Of a DNA stretch of 24,247 nucleotides, positions 9,988 to 23,697 are shown piece after piece; the stretch's first letter is position 1, and each line of letters opens with the position of its first letter. The notes under the pieces are model-generated. The model did not search any database. It saw only the letters and a list, made by a program, of their open reading frames with translations, and was not told where the DNA came from. The translations under genes and the position numbers were made by a program. The stretch covers positions 1-24,247 of the IMG/VR virus record IMGVR_UViG_3300034064_001960, one strand, 5' to 3'. This DNA is from a virus.

Positions 9988-11052
9988 TTACACGTCGGCT
10001 ACGCCAGACACGTACGCTGTGAGCATGCCATGTTGCACGTTGTTGAAATACATTTTTTCGATGCCGCGCACTTCTTCCACGGACACGCCGTATTCAACGT
10101 CGTAGTCAAACATTTCTGTTTTGGTTTGTGTGCGCTGTGCCCACGCACACGCCACAGCTTGTGCGCCACAGAAAAACACAGGTGCTACGTCGATGGACGA
10201 TGCACCTACTCCAGAAATCACAGGAATCTCAGGGATTTCTTTGATGACAACGCCTTCCCACAGCATGTCCCCGTCTTGGAAAATGGGGTTGTCTTTGCCA
10301 CGCACCAGCGCATCACGCATGGCTTGTTGCATAGCGGACGATTGTTTCAAGTCACGGAATGCGGTGGTGGGAGCCAACAACACAAAGTGCTCACCGCTGC
10401 CATCAATCATCACTGGGCGAATGACTGGGTTGATGGTTTTGGCCGCACGTTTCATTTTGGAGACAAGGTCGGTGGTGAGCTTGTCGCTGGACGAATCGAC
10501 GTTGGACAACGAAGCGCTGTGGTCGTTGCTGCTGTTGTTGGCGGACAACGCGCCAAAGAAGATGCGGTCGGCATTGGCTGCAACCCATGCGTCTTTTTGC
10601 GACTCTGTAGCCGATGCGTACACGGTGCCGTTGAGCGATGGTGCAAGCATTTTTGCAATGATGGTGTCACGCAATTCTTTCATCGACCATGTTTTCAACA
10701 TCGCACGTGCGGCGTTACGCATGTCGATAGCGGTAAGCTGTTCTTCAAATTTGTGGATGCGCACGCCTTGGCGTTTCATGGACACCGCAATTTCAAATGC
10801 GTATTGCACCAGGTGTTCTTCGTTGCCTTCCAATGTCGCGGTTCCTGAAACACCTGCGCCAGTCAGCTCTTTAATCAAAGCCATCACAATGCGGTCACCA
10901 GGTTTCTTTGTGAGGTCTTCGCGCACTTGAATGATGGAATTTTCGTCTGTGCCCATCAGTGCAGAGAATTGGTTCGCACGCACGTATTCACGAAAGAATG
11001 CGTCGTCCCACTGTTTCACCTTCAGGTCTGCGGTCACCGTTGTCTTCGCCAT
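9988..11052 (-). CDS. Major capsid protein, N4-gp56-like family
   Basis: 354 residues from ATG 11052. ATG 11055 is also possible, but AGGAG lies only 3 nt before it and 6 nt before 11052. Family-like elements in order: N-terminal KQWDDAFFREYVRANQFSA, GDRIVMALIKELTGAGV, LEGNEEHLVQYAFEIAV (E-loop region), then NPVIRPVMIDGSGEHFVLL, KDNPIFQDGDMLWEGVVI and the C-terminal FCGAQAVACAWAQR. These match the N4-gp56 group of HK97-fold capsid proteins as I recall it. Scaffold lies immediately upstream and head completion downstream. In P22 the coat protein is of a different family, so this is a mosaic swap. A hairpin lies directly before the SD. Confidence 0.9.
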   Translation of the reverse strand: MAKTTVTADLKVKQWDDAFFREYVRANQFSALMGTDENSIIQVREDLTKKPGDRIVMALIKELTGAGVSGTATLEGNEEHLVQYAFEIAVSMKRQGVRIHKFEEQLTAIDMRNAARAMLKTWSMKELRDTIIAKMLAPSLNGTVYASATESQKDAWVAANADRIFFGALSANNSSNDHSASLSNVDSSSDKLTTDLVSKMKRAAKTINPVIRPVMIDGSGEHFVLLAPTTAFRDLKQSSAMQQAMRDALVRGKDNPIFQDGDMLWEGVVIKEIPEIPVISGVGASSIDVAPVFFCGAQAVACAWAQRTQTKTEMFDYDVEYGVSVEEVRGIEKMYFNNVQHGMLTAYVSGVADV

Positions 11053-14510: not shown

Positions 14511-16406
14511 TCACACTATGCGCCAGAAGTCCACGCCTTCGGCTTCGCGTTGCACTTCTCGAAGGCTCCTGCGCGTTTGAGATGGCGACGAGGTGACGAG
14601 ATGGGCATGCACGTCTTCGAGGCCACGTGCAAACACACCGCATGCATCCACTGCGTCGTCGTATTTGGTGCCTGGGAAACCTGTGAGCTGGCCCAACACA
14701 CGCTCACCGAAGTGTGTGTTTGGCAACGAGACATTGCCCATCGCTGCCCTGGCTTGAAACGCACGTGCGCGGGTGGCTTTGTCGGTGATGGATGCCACCC
14801 ACACCATGCGTGCAAATGTGTTGCGTTCCCGCATGCGTTTGATGAGGAACGGTTCGATGGCACGACGGATAACGCCCGATTCGCCAAACACAGCGAGGGG
14901 TTTGTACGCCACCACGAAATCTAAGAGCTTGTCTATCCACACGTTGGCGGTGGATTGGCCGCTGTACCCGTCGATGAGATAGGAAACGTTGTCTTCGCCC
15001 TGTGCGAAAACAAGAAGTTCGGTGTAGTCGCCGTTGCTGTCGGTCACCGCAAAGTCTGTGCCTATGTACGTATGCATGTGCTTGGCGTTGGTGTGCACGT
15101 TAGGGCTGTGGCGTTTGAACCAGGCTTTTTTAAAGAACGCGCCTTCGTCTGTGGTGGGTTTTTGCTGGTACAGCGCCTGCCAGTCGCGGGGCACCAAAAC
15201 ACTGCGGGTGCGTTTGAGTTCTTCGAGGGGGTACCACGAGGGCCACAGTGCTTCTTCGTAGTCTGTGCCTTCGTTTTTGATGGCGGGGAGTTCCAGAATC
15301 TCCCACTTGTCGCCGCCGTTGTCTTGGGCTTCTAGCAGGCGGCCTGCAAGGTCCAATTGGTGCCATCGAGTCATGACCAACACCAAAGCTGCATTGGGCA
15401 TGCGGCGTGTGTAGAGAACCGACGAATACCAATCCCAGACCGCTTCACGCACCAATGGACTGTCGGCGTCTTCACGAGACCTTAAGGGGTCGTCGATAAT
15501 GGCGCAGTTATGCACAAGTATTCCGTCGGCAAAAAAGTTATGCGTTACTTCTACCTGGATGTCGTACACGGCACATTCCACGTCGTTGGGCTCCATGGCT
15601 GCGGTGACAATGGCTTGGGTGCCAAAGACATTCCCTTGGCCGAGGCAGAAAACTTTCTTATCGTGCACAGTGTGTGCTGGTTTGTAACCTTCGTCGGTGT
15701 AGATAAGGTGCTCTTTCGTGCATTTAAGGGTACGGCCTTCTGCTTGCACCTTTAAAATGTTTTTGGCCTGGCTTATTTTGTAGGCCGTGACCTTGCCCCA
15801 TCGGGTTTTGCCCTGCGCATGGTCGTAGGAAAGCACGTCGGGTATTGGGTTGCACTGACACAGCTCTTTAATACAGAGCTGGCCTTCGCGCGTAATGACC
15901 TTTGTGTCACCAACCACACAGTGGCTTCCCCTTCCCGTAAGCCCACCGCCCACCCCCGCTGCCACATAAACCCCACCTTGCGGCAAGTGAAAGATGCTAC
16001 GGCTTTTGGAGTCTTCAGCGAGGGAAACACCAGGAAACACCGTGGTAAAAGCTTCTGAACCGATGATGTTTCTGACATCGCGGCCAAAACCATGGGCCAG
16101 GTCTGCGCTGTAAGATGCGGCGATGAACTGTTTTTCGGGGTTGCGGCCAAGGTACCAGGCGGGAAAAAGCTTTGAAATAAGCATCGATTTGCCGCTTCTG
16201 GGGGGCGTAAAAACCATGAGACGCCTGATGTCGCCACGCTCGACGGCCTCCAGGCGTTCGATGATGGCTTTGTGGTGGGCTGCCACTTCGTAGGTTGGGT
16301 AGATGCGTTTTGCGAAGGCGTCGAGGTGCTCGCGGGATTGGCGGCGGGCTAAAAGTTCTTTGGCTGCTTCTATTGCAACGTTTCCACGGATTGGTTCGTC
16401 TGCCAT
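14511..16406 (-). CDS. terL: Terminase large subunit, interrupted by a mini-intein
   Basis: 631 residues, of which 138 are intein, leaving a 493-residue packaging motor (P22 gp2 about 499). ATPase part: Walker A-like FTPPRSGKS (residues 67-75), Walker B AIIDDP at 302-307 directly after the intein, and the coupling motif VLVMTRWHQ (about 342-350). Nuclease part, RNase H fold: candidate carboxylates D451 (GTDFAV), E509 (FGES) and D583/D584 (KYDDAVDA). ATG 16406 has no convincing SD. The terminal hairpin of an IS605-type element ends about 14 nt upstream, so the native leader has probably been displaced. There is an 84-nt gap to the portal. Small terminase is 2.8 kb away on the far side of the element. 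Confidence 0.95.
   Translation of the reverse strand: MADEPIRGNVAIEAAKELLARRQSREHLDAFAKRIYPTYEVAAHHKAIIERLEAVERGDIRRLMVFTPPRSGKSMLISKLFPAWYLGRNPEKQFIAASYSADLAHGFGRDVRNIIGSEAFTTVFPGVSLAEDSKSRSIFHLPQGGVYVAAGVGGGLTGRGSHCVVGDTKVITREGQLCIKELCQCNPIPDVLSYDHAQGKTRWGKVTAYKISQAKNILKVQAEGRTLKCTKEHLIYTDEGYKPAHTVHDKKVFCLGQGNVFGTQAIVTAAMEPNDVECAVYDIQVEVTHNFFADGILVHNCAIIDDPLRSREDADSPLVREAVWDWYSSVLYTRRMPNAALVLVMTRWHQLDLAGRLLEAQDNGGDKWEILELPAIKNEGTDYEEALWPSWYPLEELKRTRSVLVPRDWQALYQQKPTTDEGAFFKKAWFKRHSPNVHTNAKHMHTYIGTDFAVTDSNGDYTELLVFAQGEDNVSYLIDGYSGQSTANVWIDKLLDFVVAYKPLAVFGESGVIRRAIEPFLIKRMRERNTFARMVWVASITDKATRARAFQARAAMGNVSLPNTHFGERVLGQLTGFPGTKYDDAVDACGVFARGLEDVHAHLVTSSPSQTRRSLREVQREAEGVDFWRIV
15507..15920 (-). 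other. Mini-intein in the large terminase (138 aa)
   Basis: Residues 163-300 of the precursor. Block A is CVVGDTKVIT with Cys1, block B is CTKEHLIYT (the TxxH motif, T68 and H71), block F is VYDIQVEVTHNFFADG and block G is VHN followed by extein Cys+1. All splicing residues of a class 1 intein are present, including the penultimate His and terminal Asn. There is no homing endonuclease (no LAGLIDADG or HNH blocks) between blocks B and F, only about 40 residues. Insertion lies between GRGSH and CAIIDDP, at the Walker B strand. The size is near the lower limit of known inteins. Confidence 0.95.
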
Positions 16407-16407
16407 A

Positions 16408-16560
16408 GGCTTTTGTTATGCTCTCTCTCCCTAAAGGGAAAGAGCTTCTAGAGTTGCACTGAAAATACGCCTGGGCCGTCACTTGCGTGACACGGCTCAC
16501 CCCATTGGGGTTCCCCGTTGCTTGGGGCGATCTTCAACTCCAGACAACTGCGCGACCATG
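16408..16560 (-). ncRNA. Candidate omega RNA of the first TnpB
   Basis: In studied elements the guide RNA comes from the tnpB 3' end through the right-end hairpin into flanking DNA. Here that interval contains the end of tnpB and the CCC-TAAA-GGG hairpin at 16421-16444. The guide would be the next bases on the minus strand, reading into the terL start codon. The extent is inferred and no promoter or end has been identified. Confidence 0.35.
16421..16444. repeat. Right-end hairpin of the IS605-type element
   Basis: CTCT / AGAG and CCC / GGG arms surround a TAAA loop, with a 2-nt mismatch between the arm segments. It lies just beyond the tnpB stop and ends about 15 nt from the terL start codon. 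Confidence 0.75.
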
Positions 16561-17791
16561 CGCGCTGACCCGCATCCAGGCTACTACTACGTGCTGACGT
16601 TTGACCTTGAACACGGTTATTTACTCCGCGTCCTAGCCTTGCGGCACCAGCCCGTAGATACGTGATGATTTCAGGAAACATGACGCGCTCACCAAAGGCA
16701 AGCTTATGCATGTTGACCGATCCGACAACATCGCGGTGGCCCAAAAAACCACACTGTCGGCACTGCCAGAGTCTGCCTCTGGCCTTTTGCTTATGTTCAC
16801 AATCGGGGCATACACTTGAAGTTCCGCGTTCGCTTCCTTTGAAAAAAGCCATGCCACAACGCTCTGATTTGTGTTCAAGGTAGCGGATGTCGCGCCCAAA
16901 TTCCCACTGACTCATGCGCTGATTCTGATGCCTCCCAGACCGTTTGCGCTGCACCCCGTCTGGATTGCCCACAAACAAACGAGAAACACCTTCGCTGCGA
17001 CAAAAGGCTATCACCTTGGCGGTGCCTTTGTGTTGCAGGTCTCGGCACCGACGCTCAGCGCGTGTGGTGACTTTACACCGCGCAACTTGTAACTTGCGCC
17101 AACGACGCGAACCCTTGGTACAGCGCGCACGCTTTTGGGCAATTTCTCCCAACGCAACATTGCGAGCCCGTTTCACCGCACGTATTCCACGCCCCGATAC
17201 AACCATCGCTTTGCCGGTGTTGGTTGACACCGCGCACTGATGAATTTGCCCTAAATCCACCGTAGCTCGAACTTGTGAGTCCAAAGCTTGTAAAACAACA
17301 GCCGTTTGCTGCTCCATACAAACATGCAATTCATAACCATCGCGCCAAACTATTTTGCAACTGCCGATGGCTTCTGGCAACGACACCTTCAGTACAATCG
17401 ACGCTCGACCTTGGCCCATTGGAAGGATGATCCGCCCTTCCTTACGCTTCACCGCTTGCGCTGGCCACAACAGCGGATAAAACCGCTTGTCGCGCCACGG
17501 ATAACGCATCTTCATTTCTGGATGACTCTTGCGCAGCTCTCGCGTTGTTTTCACGTTCGCTAAAAACGCATGTGTCACCATTTGAATGCTTTGAGAATGC
17601 AGCGGATATTGGCCCTTTGTAGCTTTTTGCAGCTCATCCTTGCCTGGCCACGGAGTGTTTTCCTCCCGTGCTTTCAAATGAACGTTTTTGCAAAACGTAT
17701 ACACCTCACCGCTCGCAAGCTGCCCCGCATGCAACTGCTCACGCAGTCGGTGCGAAAGATGCTTGAGAGGGATGATTTTTACCGTTTGCAT
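16448..17791 (-). CDS. tnpB: TnpB, IS605-family RNA-guided nuclease
   Basis: 447 residues from ATG 17791, which has AGGA 8 nt upstream. ATG 17797 and longer starts are in frame but poorly placed or reach into tnpA. RuvC-I is TVDLGQIHQCAV (D179). The RuvC-II position reads LFVGNPDGV, with no Glu at the usual place, and a conserved-looking Glu sits 20 residues later in MSQWEFGRDI (E297). The zinc ribbon is CPDC (328/331) and CRQC (344/347). RuvC-III is GHRDVVGSVNM (D354). This VGNP..GV / GHRDVVGSVN type is a distinct TnpB group and has a long basic tail ending near the element end. It is transcribed in the same direction as terL, so read-through could affect terL expression. Confidence 0.93.
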   Translation of the reverse strand: MQTVKIIPLKHLSHRLREQLHAGQLASGEVYTFCKNVHLKAREENTPWPGKDELQKATKGQYPLHSQSIQMVTHAFLANVKTTRELRKSHPEMKMRYPWRDKRFYPLLWPAQAVKRKEGRIILPMGQGRASIVLKVSLPEAIGSCKIVWRDGYELHVCMEQQTAVVLQALDSQVRATVDLGQIHQCAVSTNTGKAMVVSGRGIRAVKRARNVALGEIAQKRARCTKGSRRWRKLQVARCKVTTRAERRCRDLQHKGTAKVIAFCRSEGVSRLFVGNPDGVQRKRSGRHQNQRMSQWEFGRDIRYLEHKSERCGMAFFKGSERGTSSVCPDCEHKQKARGRLWQCRQCGFLGHRDVVGSVNMHKLAFGERVMFPEIITYLRAGAARLGRGVNNRVQGQTSARSSSLDAGQRAWSRSCLELKIAPSNGEPQWGEPCHASDGPGVFSVQL

Positions 17792-17842
17792 GTTCATTAT
17801 CCTAAATGGTACTCCAACGTCCCTAACATAGAATGGAGTAGC

Positions 17843-18262
17843 ATGCAAACAGATAAATCGTTGTACTCGCAGGGGAAAACACGATGGACACACTATCAGA
17901 TTGCATACCATTTTGTTTGGATCCCCAAGTACCGACGCAAAGTGCTGGCGGGTGCCGTGGAGACCGAGCTAAAACGGCTAATAGGAGAGTGCTCCGAAAA
18001 ATACGGATGGAAAATCTTGGCACTAGAAACCGATAAAGATCACGTCCACTGTTTTGTCAGCGCCCCGCCACGGTGGGCACCGGCGGTGATCGTAGGGCAC
18101 CTAAAAGGCTACACGTCCAAGTTCCTGCGCGAAAAATTTCCAGCCCTCAAACGAGTTTGTGGACACGAGCAATTGTGGACACAAGCCTACTACGTGGGGA
18201 CTGCGGGCGCCGTTTCAACAGAAGTCATTCGTCGCTACATTTCAGATTGCCAAGGCAAGTGA
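17843..18262 (+). CDS. tnpA: TnpA, IS200/IS605 Y1 transposase
   Basis: 139 residues, the family's usual length. It is a single-strand DNA transposase that cuts and rejoins hairpin ends. The HUH motif is DHVHCF (H67, H69) and the catalytic tyrosine is Y132 in IRRYISDCQGK. YHFVWIPKYRRKVL at about 22-35 is the typical first strand. ATG 17843 is chosen because family proteins start just before this region; the frame stays open upstream to 17570 inside tnpB. Diverges from tnpB with 51 bp between starts, so they share a regulatory gap. Confidence 0.95.
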   Translation: MQTDKSLYSQGKTRWTHYQIAYHFVWIPKYRRKVLAGAVETELKRLIGECSEKYGWKILALETDKDHVHCFVSAPPRWAPAVIVGHLKGYTSKFLREKFPALKRVCGHEQLWTQAYYVGTAGAVSTEVIRRYISDCQGK

Positions 18263-18290
18263 TGCCGCTGCCGCGGCTCGTCACTCTCAT

Positions 18291-18313
18291 CTCAATCCCC
18301 TAAAGGGGATGAG
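18291..18313. repeat. Left-end hairpin of the IS605-type element
   Basis: CTC, bulged A, ATCCCC, loop TAAA, GGGGAT, GAG. A stem with one bulged base is the classic shape bound by Y1 transposases. It lies 30 bp after the tnpA stop. Confidence 0.75.
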
Positions 18314-18471
18314 AATTCTCGCGCCGTTTTTTTAAATATGGGGACGGCGGCCAGTGGTTTAAGTTCGGGAACGTGCTCAAGCAAGAAGCCACTTTAGAGC
18401 GCATAGATTTGCGTTTATACTACAGAGATGGCGATTACGATTTAGGCGTAGATGTTAGGTACGTGTACTAG
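18313..18471 (+). pseudogene. Orphan 3' coding fragment next to the IS605-type element
   Basis: From the element end to TAG at 18469-18471 the plus strand has an open frame of about 50 codons without a start. It reads KYGDGGQWFKFGNVLKQ, then ATLERIDLRLYYRDGDY and DLGVDVRYVY. The residue mix (aromatics, alternating charges, Gly turns) looks like a true small beta protein rather than chance. An ATG at 16418, on the other side of the element, could have been its start. Unrecognised family. It is the reverse strand relative to the late genes. Confidence 0.5.
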
Positions 18472-18502
18472 CACCTGCACGCAAAATGCACACGTTAACG
18501 CG

Positions 18503-18967
18503 CTACTTTCCACAGGCATAAAACATATGCACCCACACAGCACCTGCTGCGAACGTCGCAGTATCGTCGTTGACCGTCAAAATGACAGGTGTTTTTTCAG
18601 TGAGGGCGTAGGGGCCGTTTTTCAACAAGCCGTTCAAAGGCATCCATATCTGGGCTTCAGGTTTGACGCCCGACACAGCCGCGCCACCCACCACACCGAA
18701 ATTGCCGAAGGCGTCGGTATCGGAAGGCACGCCAATGTCGAAATCGAATGTGGCTGAGGCGTCGGTGTCCAACCGCACACCACGCACAGCGCCGTCCAGC
18801 ACTTTGCAGGCAGGCAAGTAGAACAAATACAACACATCCGCGGGTGCAGGGTCTGCGGTGAAGGAATAACCACCCCACGCTGCGTTGACCACACCGCCGC
18901 CGTATTCGGTCACGGGGTATGTTGCGCGTCCAGAACCGACAGGAATATCCGAGTATAAAGTAGCCAT
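18503..18967 (-). CDS. Probable head decoration / small beta-sandwich virion protein
   Basis: 154 residues. The pattern resembles a widespread group of small phage proteins: an N-terminal strand (MATLYSDIPVGSGRATY), then YSFTADPAPADVLYLFYLPACKVLDGAVRG, VRLDTDASATFDFDIGV and a C-terminal strand pair (KTPVILTVNDDTATFAAGAV, VWVHMFYACGK). These are usually virion-associated. A strong AGGAGGTG SD lies 7 nt before ATG 18967, partly paired in a hairpin. It lies between small and large terminase genes and is separated from the latter by the insertion element. Assignment is by composition only. Confidence 0.7.
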   Translation of the reverse strand: MATLYSDIPVGSGRATYPVTEYGGGVVNAAWGGYSFTADPAPADVLYLFYLPACKVLDGAVRGVRLDTDASATFDFDIGVPSDTDAFGNFGVVGGAAVSGVKPEAQIWMPLNGLLKNGPYALTEKTPVILTVNDDTATFAAGAVWVHMFYACGK

Positions 18968-22243: not shown

Positions 22244-22264
22244 CTCCGCCCTTTAGGGCGTGAG
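22244..22264. repeat. Left-end hairpin of the tnpB element
   Basis: Stem CTC-CGCCC with GGGCG-GAG, loop TTTA and one bulged T (22261), the typical imperfect hairpin of this superfamily. A second small stem (ACGCC-GAA-GGCGT) follows. Confidence 0.75.
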
Positions 22265-22340
22265 ATATAAGGCGCACGCCGAAGGCGTAAATTTTTCTTT
22301 CCTTTCCGTCATTGAAATGTTAGGTGTCCAGAAAATAGCC

Positions 22341-23417
22341 ATGCCATCTGCGATAAAAACCCTTAAAGTGCGTGTGAAAGATAAACACGCGAAAAAATTG
22401 CGGCGTATGGCAGCGTCTGTCAACTTTGTGTGGAATTACATCAATGATCTTTCTTTTAGATATTTTAAACAACACCGTGTGTTTTTAACAGAATACGATT
22501 TGCATCCCTATACCACAGGGGCTTCTAAGGAACTTAAAATCCATAGCCAAACAGTGCAGTGTGTTGCAAAAGAATACGTGACACGCAGAAAGCAATTTGC
22601 AAAAGCAAGATTGCGGTGGCGGAAAACCTATGGGACAAAGCGTTCTTTAGGTTGGATTCCTGTGAATACAGGTGCTTCTTGTTTTAAAGAGGGTACAGTT
22701 TTTCACAACGGCCAAAAGTTTTCTGTGTGGGATTCGTATGGTTTAGAACAATACCGATTTAAAAACGCTTCTTTCAATGAGGATGCCACAGGTCGATGGT
22801 ATTTCAATGTGGTGGTGGAAGAAGCGGTTTCACAATCGGTGGGCAGAAAAGCTGTAGGCATTGATTTAGGATGCAAGAGCGCAGCCACTTGCTCTACAGG
22901 TCATAAAATTGAAGGCCGTTGGTATCGGACTCAAGAAGAAGCATTAAAGAAAGCCCAGCGGTATAAGAAAAAGAAACGTGCACGGGCTATCCACCGTAAA
23001 ATCAAAAACATACGTAAAGATGCTTTGCACCATTTAAGTTGTAAGCTGGTGCAGAAAAATGCAGCAGTATTCATCGGCAATGTATCCAGTGCCAAGATGG
23101 TCAAGACGAAGATGGCAAAATCGGTTCTTGATGCCTCTTGGGGGATGCTGAAAACCATGTTGAACTATAAATGCGCTTACGCAAACGTGGTTTTTGAAGT
23201 TGTGGATGAAAAATGGACAACCCAAACCTGTTCATCATGTGGTGATAGGCCGTTTACACGGCCTAGAGGTTTCGCAGGGCTTGGAATAAGAGAATGGGTT
23301 TGTACCTCATGCGGCACACGGCATGACCGTGATGTCAATGCGGCCAAAAACATTCTCGCGGTCGGACTCGGTCGTCTCGTTGGAGGAATTCCCGTAAGGG
23401 ATAGGAGCTGTGCTTAA
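22341..23417 (+). CDS. tnpB: TnpB, IS1341-type RNA-guided nuclease
   Basis: 358 residues from ATG 22341 (MPSAIKTLKVRVKDKHAK), which matches the usual family start; the frame is open to 22260 but the extra residues look unrelated. N-terminal domain with NFVWNYINDLSFR, then RuvC-I VGIDLGCKSAAT (D175), the RuvC-II position VFIGNVSSAKMVKTKMAKS (Asn in place of the usual Glu; E286 and E290 in VFEVVDEKW are candidates), zinc ribbon C297/C300 and C321/C324, and RuvC-III HDRDVNAAKNI (D331). All other family landmarks are intact and there is no stop or frameshift. It belongs to a different TnpB group from the one at 16.4-17.8 kb. Confidence 0.93.
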   Translation: MPSAIKTLKVRVKDKHAKKLRRMAASVNFVWNYINDLSFRYFKQHRVFLTEYDLHPYTTGASKELKIHSQTVQCVAKEYVTRRKQFAKARLRWRKTYGTKRSLGWIPVNTGASCFKEGTVFHNGQKFSVWDSYGLEQYRFKNASFNEDATGRWYFNVVVEEAVSQSVGRKAVGIDLGCKSAATCSTGHKIEGRWYRTQEEALKKAQRYKKKKRARAIHRKIKNIRKDALHHLSCKLVQKNAAVFIGNVSSAKMVKTKMAKSVLDASWGMLKTMLNYKCAYANVVFEVVDEKWTTQTCSSCGDRPFTRPRGFAGLGIREWVCTSCGTRHDRDVNAAKNILAVGLGRLVGGIPVRDRSCA

Positions 23418-23480
23418 GTGCACAGGGAATCCCGTGACTTTTAGGCATGGGAGGAATCAAAGAATCGGGCTCTGGACAAA
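23330..23480 (+). ncRNA. Candidate omega RNA of the second TnpB
   Basis: The interval from the tnpB 3' end through the right end holds small stems (TGTGC / GCACA at 23409-23424 and the TCCCGTG hairpin at 23430-23452), as in known guide RNAs of this superfamily. The guide would begin about 23461 with AGAATCGGGCTC. Extent is inferred. Confidence 0.38.
23430..23452. repeat. Right-end hairpin of the tnpB element
   Basis: TCCCGTG pairs with CATGGGA (one G-T wobble) around a 9-nt loop. It is followed by GGAATCAA, which resembles the usual end of such elements. Confidence 0.7.
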
Positions 23481-23697
23481 CTTCTGCCATAGATCTTAAA
23501 ACTAATTCTTTTGTCACATTTTCTGGAGAGTTTTTGTAAAACCAATAAAGTTTTACGACGTCAGCATTTTCTGTGATTTTTTCTGTGATTGCGTCAACGT
23601 ACCTGCAATAACGTTTAGCCACTTCACCCAGCACCCCCCCTGCCCTTTTTTTTGCAGCGAGGGGCTCAACACCCCCCACCCAATTTTTTAGCAGCAC
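23461..23697 (-). pseudogene. Unknown gene truncated by the tnpB element
   Basis: GTG 23697 follows AGGGG closely and begins 5 nt after the ssb stop, so it belonged to the ssb operon. About 79 native codons remain (LLKNWVGGVEPLAAKK, VAKRYCRYVDAITEKI, ENVTKELVLRSMAEV) before the frame enters the element, continuing as a chimera to a stop at 23335. The surviving part is helical and charged. I do not recognise the family. On the far side of the element a minus-strand frame of 28 codons (about 22225 to 22140) could be its old end, but this is unproven. Confidence 0.6.

What the first reader, a model, noticed from the sequence alone, without database searches (positions are those of the whole stretch)
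16400..16425. The first TnpB's guide would target terL of element-free sister phages
Known: omega RNA guides come from DNA flanking the right end. Here the flank is GCATAACAAAAGCCTATGGC, the start of terL itself. Any superinfecting relative without the element would carry this target next to the original insertion motif, so TnpB could cut it at an essential gene and promote homing or exclude competitors. This makes a plain transposon a possible inter-phage weapon.
Basis: partly seen in the sequence, partly recalled or inferred. Interest (0 to 1): 0.66.

Follow-up and report, generated by a model that had tools for sequence, protein, structure and literature searches.

The report
Phage transposon whose guide targets terL
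A small, apparently intact transposon sits 8 bases upstream of a phage's essential DNA-packaging gene, and its RNA-guided nuclease is predicted to cut that spot in sister phages lacking the transposon; this is how such transposons are known to work, but the phage setting makes it a good test case for competition between viruses.

Summary
Comparison with 16 related right ends puts the element's end at 16415, so GCATAAC belongs to the transposon. The predicted guide is AAAAGCCTATGGCAGACGAA (16414 to 16395, minus strand). It still covers the terL start codon (16406-16404) and codons 2-4.

The element (16415-18330, 1,916 bp) is an IS200/IS605 insertion with divergent tnpA and tnpB. Nothing looks dead. 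TnpB has the alternative RuvC site (D181, E323, D356), invariant in 20 relatives. Its omega-RNA scaffold is supported by strong covariation. TnpA keeps its HVH motif and tyrosine. The left end is preceded by TTTAAA, matching the TTAAC/TTAAA motif beside relatives.

Not shown: an empty site. No IMG/VR contig holds the guide target exactly. Two sister-phage contigs (98-99.8% identical DNA) end before terL; other terL relatives are at most 56% identical and lack the target. One right-end base (TCAC to TAAC) deviates from relatives and makes the element's own junction TAM-like.

Verdict: new member of a known kind. Retention/homing fits the anatomy; the inter-phage weapon is plausible but inferred.

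The parts
18331..18336 (-). TTTAAA, the target/TAM-like motif immediately 5' of the left end (read TTTAA or TTAAA; the A-run leaves one base of ambiguity)
   Evidence: relatives carry TTAAC, TTAAA, TTATC, TTGAA at this place
18285..18330 (-). left end of the element with subterminal hairpin (ACGGCGCGAGAATTCTCATCCCCTTTAGGGGATTGAGATGA)
   Evidence: aligned to left ends of relatives
17843..18262 (+). tnpA, Y1 single-strand transposase, 139 aa, HVH motif and C-terminal tyrosine helix (VIRRYISDC)
   Evidence: Pfam Y1_Tnp E=4.5e-38; motifs
16448..17797 (-). tnpB, 449 aa, alternative-glutamate (E-alt) type: D181, E323, D356
   Evidence: Pfam OrfB_IS605 and Cas12f1-like_TNB; residues invariant in 20 relatives; motif; fold
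16415..16664 (-). omega-RNA scaffold, overlapping the tnpB 3' end
   Evidence: covariation across 17 right ends; window fold z = -4.7
16415..16449 (-). right-end hairpin and terminus AGAAGCTCTTTCCCTTTAGGGAGAGAGAGCATAAC; element ends at 16415
   Evidence: homology to 16 right ends
16395..16414 (-). predicted guide AAAAGCCTATGGCAGACGAA (20 nt), covering the terL start codon
   Evidence: first bases after the right end
14511..16406 (-). terL, terminase large subunit, interrupted by a mini-intein; its 5' end is the target
   Evidence: Pfam Terminase_6N and Intein_splicing; alignment with relatives

Best explanation
This is a complete IS200/IS605 transposon inserted next to TTTAAA, 8 bp upstream of terL, in a phage genome that also encodes an integrase. 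By the established TnpB mechanism, a transcript running through the 3' part of tnpB and the right end into terL is trimmed to an omega-RNA whose guide is AAAAGCCTATGGCAGA(CGAA). TnpB would then cut double-stranded DNA carrying a TTAA-type TAM plus that sequence, which is the transposon-free version of this locus. Shown here: the boundaries, intact transposase and nuclease residues, a covarying scaffold, a TAM-like motif at the left end, and a guide that overlaps the terL start codon. Inferred: transcription, cutting activity, that the two flanks were once adjacent, and the outcome, namely re-copying of the element into an empty sister genome after replication or co-infection, or loss of that genome. 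The main selected function is probably retention of the transposon; spread into, or exclusion of, empty phages is open only against near-identical sisters.
For: Right-end boundary from four copies in one genome and 12 more loci. TAM-like TTTAAA at the left end, as in relatives. D/E/D triad invariant in 20 proteins, motif fits the E-alt rule of PMC10711439, fold matches Cas12f and TnpB structures. Scaffold: 25 of 36 pairs with compensatory change, 93.9% of cells paired against 76.0% in shuffles and at most 50% when slid; window copy z = -4.7. TnpA complete. Mechanism and homing proposal: PMC8612924; gene drive shown in plasmids: PMC11870625. Sister phages at 98.2-99.8% DNA identity exist.
Against: No empty site has been seen. 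The right-end base change TCAC to TAAC is unique among 17 and could impair excision or permit self-cutting. An open frame of 47 codons on the other strand of the left flank, without phage matches, leaves it uncertain that the two flanks were ever neighbours. The window copy keeps only 29 of 36 consensus pairs, the fewest of the set, although its own fold is stable.
Confidence: 0.72

Rival explanations
1. An ordinary transposon caught in passing. TnpB acts at most at the donor site after excision, and infection by an empty sister phage is too rare, or the sister too divergent, for the guide to matter; the terL target is an accident of where the element landed.
For: Every IS200/IS605 guide matches its own empty site by construction (PMC8612924). 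Apart from two fragments of the same phage, no relative carries a comparable target. Guides beside related elements are likewise not conserved between congeneric bacteria.
Against: Near-identical sister phages do exist, in two further records, and plasmid experiments show that TnpB-bearing copies displace empty ones (PMC11870625).
Confidence: 0.5
2. A decaying, immobile copy. The right-end change and the degenerate left junction mean the element no longer transposes, and TnpB may be silent or tuned down.
For: TAAC instead of TCAC at the right end, unique among 17; the left junction reads TTTAAAAAAACGG where relatives have TTAA(A/C)GAAYGG; 7 of 36 consensus scaffold pairs not kept in the alignment.
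Against: Both reading frames open and full length, catalytic residues intact in both proteins, scaffold fold still stable.
Confidence: 0.25
3. A domesticated, nuclease-dead repressor (TldR-like) that uses the guide to regulate terL rather than cut it.
For: TldRs derive from TnpB and some are phage-encoded (PMC13418256); the guide lies on a start codon; the canonical RuvC-II glutamate is replaced by glycine.
Against: The same glycine is invariant across the clade while the alternative glutamate and both aspartates are kept, which is the known E-alt arrangement and not inactivation. tnpA and both transposon ends are present.
Confidence: 0.04

Closest known systems
ISDra2 (IS200/IS605) TnpB-reRNA, Karvelis 2021, PMC8612924
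   Same: TnpA + TnpB transposon; guide RNA from the right end into the flank; TAM equals the insertion motif; proposed cutting of the transposon-free allele and homing.
   Different: TTGAT motif; canonical glutamate; tnpA and tnpB overlap in the same direction; bacterial chromosome rather than a phage essential gene.
E-alt TnpBs / pro-Fanzor relatives, Yoon 2023, PMC10711439
   Same: Catalytic glutamate six residues before the zinc finger instead of the canonical place.
   Different: RuvC-I motif is DLG, not DPG, and the partner is a Y1 TnpA rather than an IS607 recombinase, so it is not a pro-Fanzor.
TnpB gene drive in plasmids, Mears 2025, PMC11870625
   Same: The logic: a TnpB-bearing replicon destroys otherwise identical replicons that lack the insertion.
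   Different: Shown for plasmids; here it is inferred for a phage.
Phage intron homing endonuclease in interference competition, PMC11620839
   Same: A selfish nuclease in one phage interferes with a co-infecting relative.
   Different: Protein-guided enzyme in an intron; no guide RNA.
Candidatus Methylocalor cossyra plasmid element (locus L009)
   Same: TnpB about 53% identical; same left-end, right-end and scaffold pattern; same TTAAA motif.
   Different: No tnpA inside the element; right end has the usual GTGTCAC; bacterial plasmid.

Membership tests
IS200/IS605 transposon family | Y1 (HUH, single tyrosine) TnpA | tested here: met
   Pfam Y1_Tnp 4.5e-38; HVH and VIRRYISDC motifs
IS200/IS605 transposon family | Subterminal hairpins at both ends, no target duplication, insertion 3' of a short specific motif | tested here: met
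   Both hairpins and TTTAAA/TTAAC motif by comparison with relatives; absence of duplication inferred from the ends, no empty site available
IS200/IS605 transposon family | Excision and integration of single-stranded circles | not testable with these tools
   needs an excision assay; the right-end base change makes this worth testing
TnpB RNA-guided nuclease, E-alt type | RuvC triad with the glutamate six residues before the zinc finger | tested here: met
   D181, E323, D356; invariant in 20 relatives; rule from PMC10711439
TnpB RNA-guided nuclease, E-alt type | Structured omega-RNA ending at the right end, guide from the flank | tested here: met
   Structure and covariation tested; existence of the RNA itself not tested
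TnpB RNA-guided nuclease, E-alt type | TAM-dependent DNA cutting | not testable with these tools
   TAM-like motif found; activity needs an assay
Pro-Fanzor / Fanzor lineage | DPG motif in RuvC-I together with E-alt | tested here: not met
   motif is DLG
TldR nuclease-dead repressors | Loss of the RuvC catalytic residues | tested here: not met
   triad intact
Phage homing element | Empty allele in sister phages carrying TAM plus target | tested here: inconclusive
   sister contigs end before terL; no exact guide match in IMG/VR
Phage homing element | Biased inheritance in co-infection | not testable with these tools
   needs phage crosses

The most novel reading that the evidence does not exclude
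The element acts as an RNA-guided homing and exclusion weapon between sister phages. In addition, because the terL start codon lies inside the guide, one transcript can serve either as terL messenger or as omega-RNA, so TnpB would also set the level of terminase in its own carrier and tie packaging to the weapon.
Probability: 0.12. Interest if true: 0.75.

Novelty: new member of a known kind. Interest (0 to 1): 0.4.

Why it matters
TnpB gene drive has been shown for plasmids and protein homing endonucleases compete between phages, but I found no paper among those searched that shows a TnpB doing this between phages. Here the anatomy is complete, the target is the start of an essential packaging gene, and near-identical sister phages are on record, so the idea can be tested directly with a synthetic empty site. 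It also defines an E-alt TnpB clade with a well-supported guide scaffold and a TTAA-type motif.

Tried and rejected
Dead TnpB: rejected; the glycine at the canonical glutamate is clade-wide and the alternative glutamate is invariant. Sister phages with an empty site: searched by terL protein and profile, portal, major capsid, terS and the guide 18-mer in IMG/VR and by DNA in INPHARED; only two partial sister records came up, neither reaching terL. Close copies of the same element in viral contigs: none. Empty sites of relatives in Ktedonobacteria and Holophagaceae, to confirm the motif from outside: no homologous junction recovered. A pairing rule between end guides and cleavage sites, as known from IS608, was considered for the right-end change but did not hold in the Ktedonobacteria copies, so it is not used. 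The left-flank open frame (47 aa) had no phage match and may be chance. No Rfam family matched. One script timed out, one had a coding error, one pattern search was uninformative, and relatives could not be drawn for a virus record.

Full report
What was checked. The window is a linear IMG/VR record of 24,247 bases. It carries a phage late gene cluster (terL, P22-type portal, capsid, DNA-ejection-like protein) and an integrase; the nearest annotated phages by terL are Pseudanabaena phage Pam1 and similar.

Boundaries. Relatives of the TnpB were found on a Methylocalor plasmid and in bacterial genomes. Four copies in one complete Ktedonobacteria genome share sequence up to ...GGAGTGTCAC and then diverge, and start at A(C/T)GGGAGCG... 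next to TTAAC (three copies) or GTGAC (one). Twelve further loci have the same kind of right end, with the last four bases TCAC. The window reads TAGAAGCTC...GAG-AGCATAAC, eight bases after the closing GAG of the hairpin, as in the closest relatives, so the element ends at 16415. The left end, (A)AAACGGCGCGAGAATTCTCATCCCC..., matches relatives and is preceded by TTTAAA at 18336-18331, comparable to TTAAA in L009 and L044 and TTAAC in L012, L014, L017, L019, L025 and L027. The element is 1,916 bp.

Is the nuclease alive? The canonical RuvC-II glutamate is a glycine (LFVGNPDG), which at first looks dead. But the protein fits the pattern E-x6-CxxC-x12-CxxC-x6-D, the alternative glutamate arrangement described in PMC10711439. 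In 20 relatives the residues D181, E323 and D356 (one higher in alignment numbering) and the glycine are all invariant. The predicted structure (mean pLDDT 81, pTM 0.51) matches Cas12f and TnpB solved structures with E-values down to 2e-16, though with low whole-chain TM-scores. TnpA has a full Y1 domain, an HVH motif and a tyrosine helix.

Is there a guide RNA? Seventeen right ends give a consensus structure of 36 pairs, of which 25 show compensatory changes; 93.9% of cells pair, against 76.0% in shuffles and at most 50% when partners are slid. The window's own sequence folds at z = -4.7, leaves the guide mostly unpaired and keeps 29 of the 36 consensus pairs as aligned. No Rfam family matches. 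Transcription itself was not testable here.

Is there a target in other phages? Not seen directly. The 18-mer AAAAGCCTATGGCAGACG has no exact match in other IMG/VR records. Two IMG/VR contigs are sisters of this phage at 98.2-99.8% DNA identity, but they stop at window positions 10852 and 11195, before terL. Other terL relatives are at most 56% identical, and their loci match the guide no better than shuffled guides do. The target population is therefore this phage species or something very close to it. The joined site TTTAA(A)|AAAAGCCTATGGC is inferred; a 47-codon open frame in the left flank, on the other strand and without a phage match, leaves some doubt that the two flanks were once neighbours, though it may be chance.

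How it most likely works. In the ISDra2 model (PMC8612924), RNA from the right end guides TnpB to the TAM-flanked empty site, and repair from an intact copy restores the transposon there. tnpB and terL lie on the same strand, 41 bp apart, so a transcript through tnpB into terL would contain the guide (inference). In a co-infected or lysogenic cell an element-free sister genome would be cut near the first codons of terL and either converted or lost (inference). Mears 2025 (PMC11870625) showed this logic for plasmids, and an intron endonuclease does the like between phages (PMC11620839). I rate the capacity for retention/homing as likely and a real role in phage competition as open.

Oddities that matter. 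The right-end TAAC differs from the TCAC of all 16 relatives. It gives the element's own junction the sequence ATAAC, one base from the TTAAC motif, so self-cutting, or loss of excision, should be tested. The guide contains the terL start codon, so omega-RNA and terL messenger are alternative uses of one stretch of transcript; whether that matters is unknown.

Verdict. Observation partly confirmed, interpretation partly supported. It is a new member of a known kind in an informative place: every TnpB transposon has a guide against its own empty site, and what is special here is only that the site is the start of a phage's essential packaging gene.

Noticed in passing
terL, 14511-16406; about residues 163-300 of the protein: terL is also interrupted by a mini-intein of about 138 residues (CVVGDTKVI...FADGILVHN|C), inserted just before the Walker B motif and absent from all relatives aligned. 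One essential gene thus bears two selfish elements, the intein and the transposon 8 bp upstream.
   Followed up: partly
22260-23417: A second tnpB without tnpA, also of the E-alt type (DLG, EKWTTQTCSSC..., RD), with a right-end-like sequence near 23450. It seems to interrupt a minus-strand ORF at 23335-23697, so it should have a guide of its own.
   Followed up: partly
18503-18967: A cement-protein homologue (36% to Pseudanabaena phage Pam5) lies between the terS-like ORF and terL, whereas in Pam1 and Pam5 it follows the major capsid gene; no cement gene was evident after the capsid gene here. The gene appears to have moved.
   Followed up: partly
L234-L237: Two IMG/VR contigs (3300046009_014330, 3300046010_012816) are the same phage species at 98.2-99.8% DNA identity; one extends about 7.2 kb beyond the window's left end. 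Both break just past the capsid gene.
   Followed up: partly
18340-18480, plus strand: Open frame FFKYGDGGQWFKFGNVLKQEATLERIDLRLYYRDGDYDLGVDVRYVY* ending beside the left end; protein-like, but no phage match. It may be the tail of a lost gene or chance.
   Followed up: partly
L012-L028, L042: In this TnpB clade the tnpB reading frame runs through the omega-RNA scaffold, in several members into the right-end hairpin itself, so coding and RNA constraints overlap over more than 100 bases.
   Followed up: no
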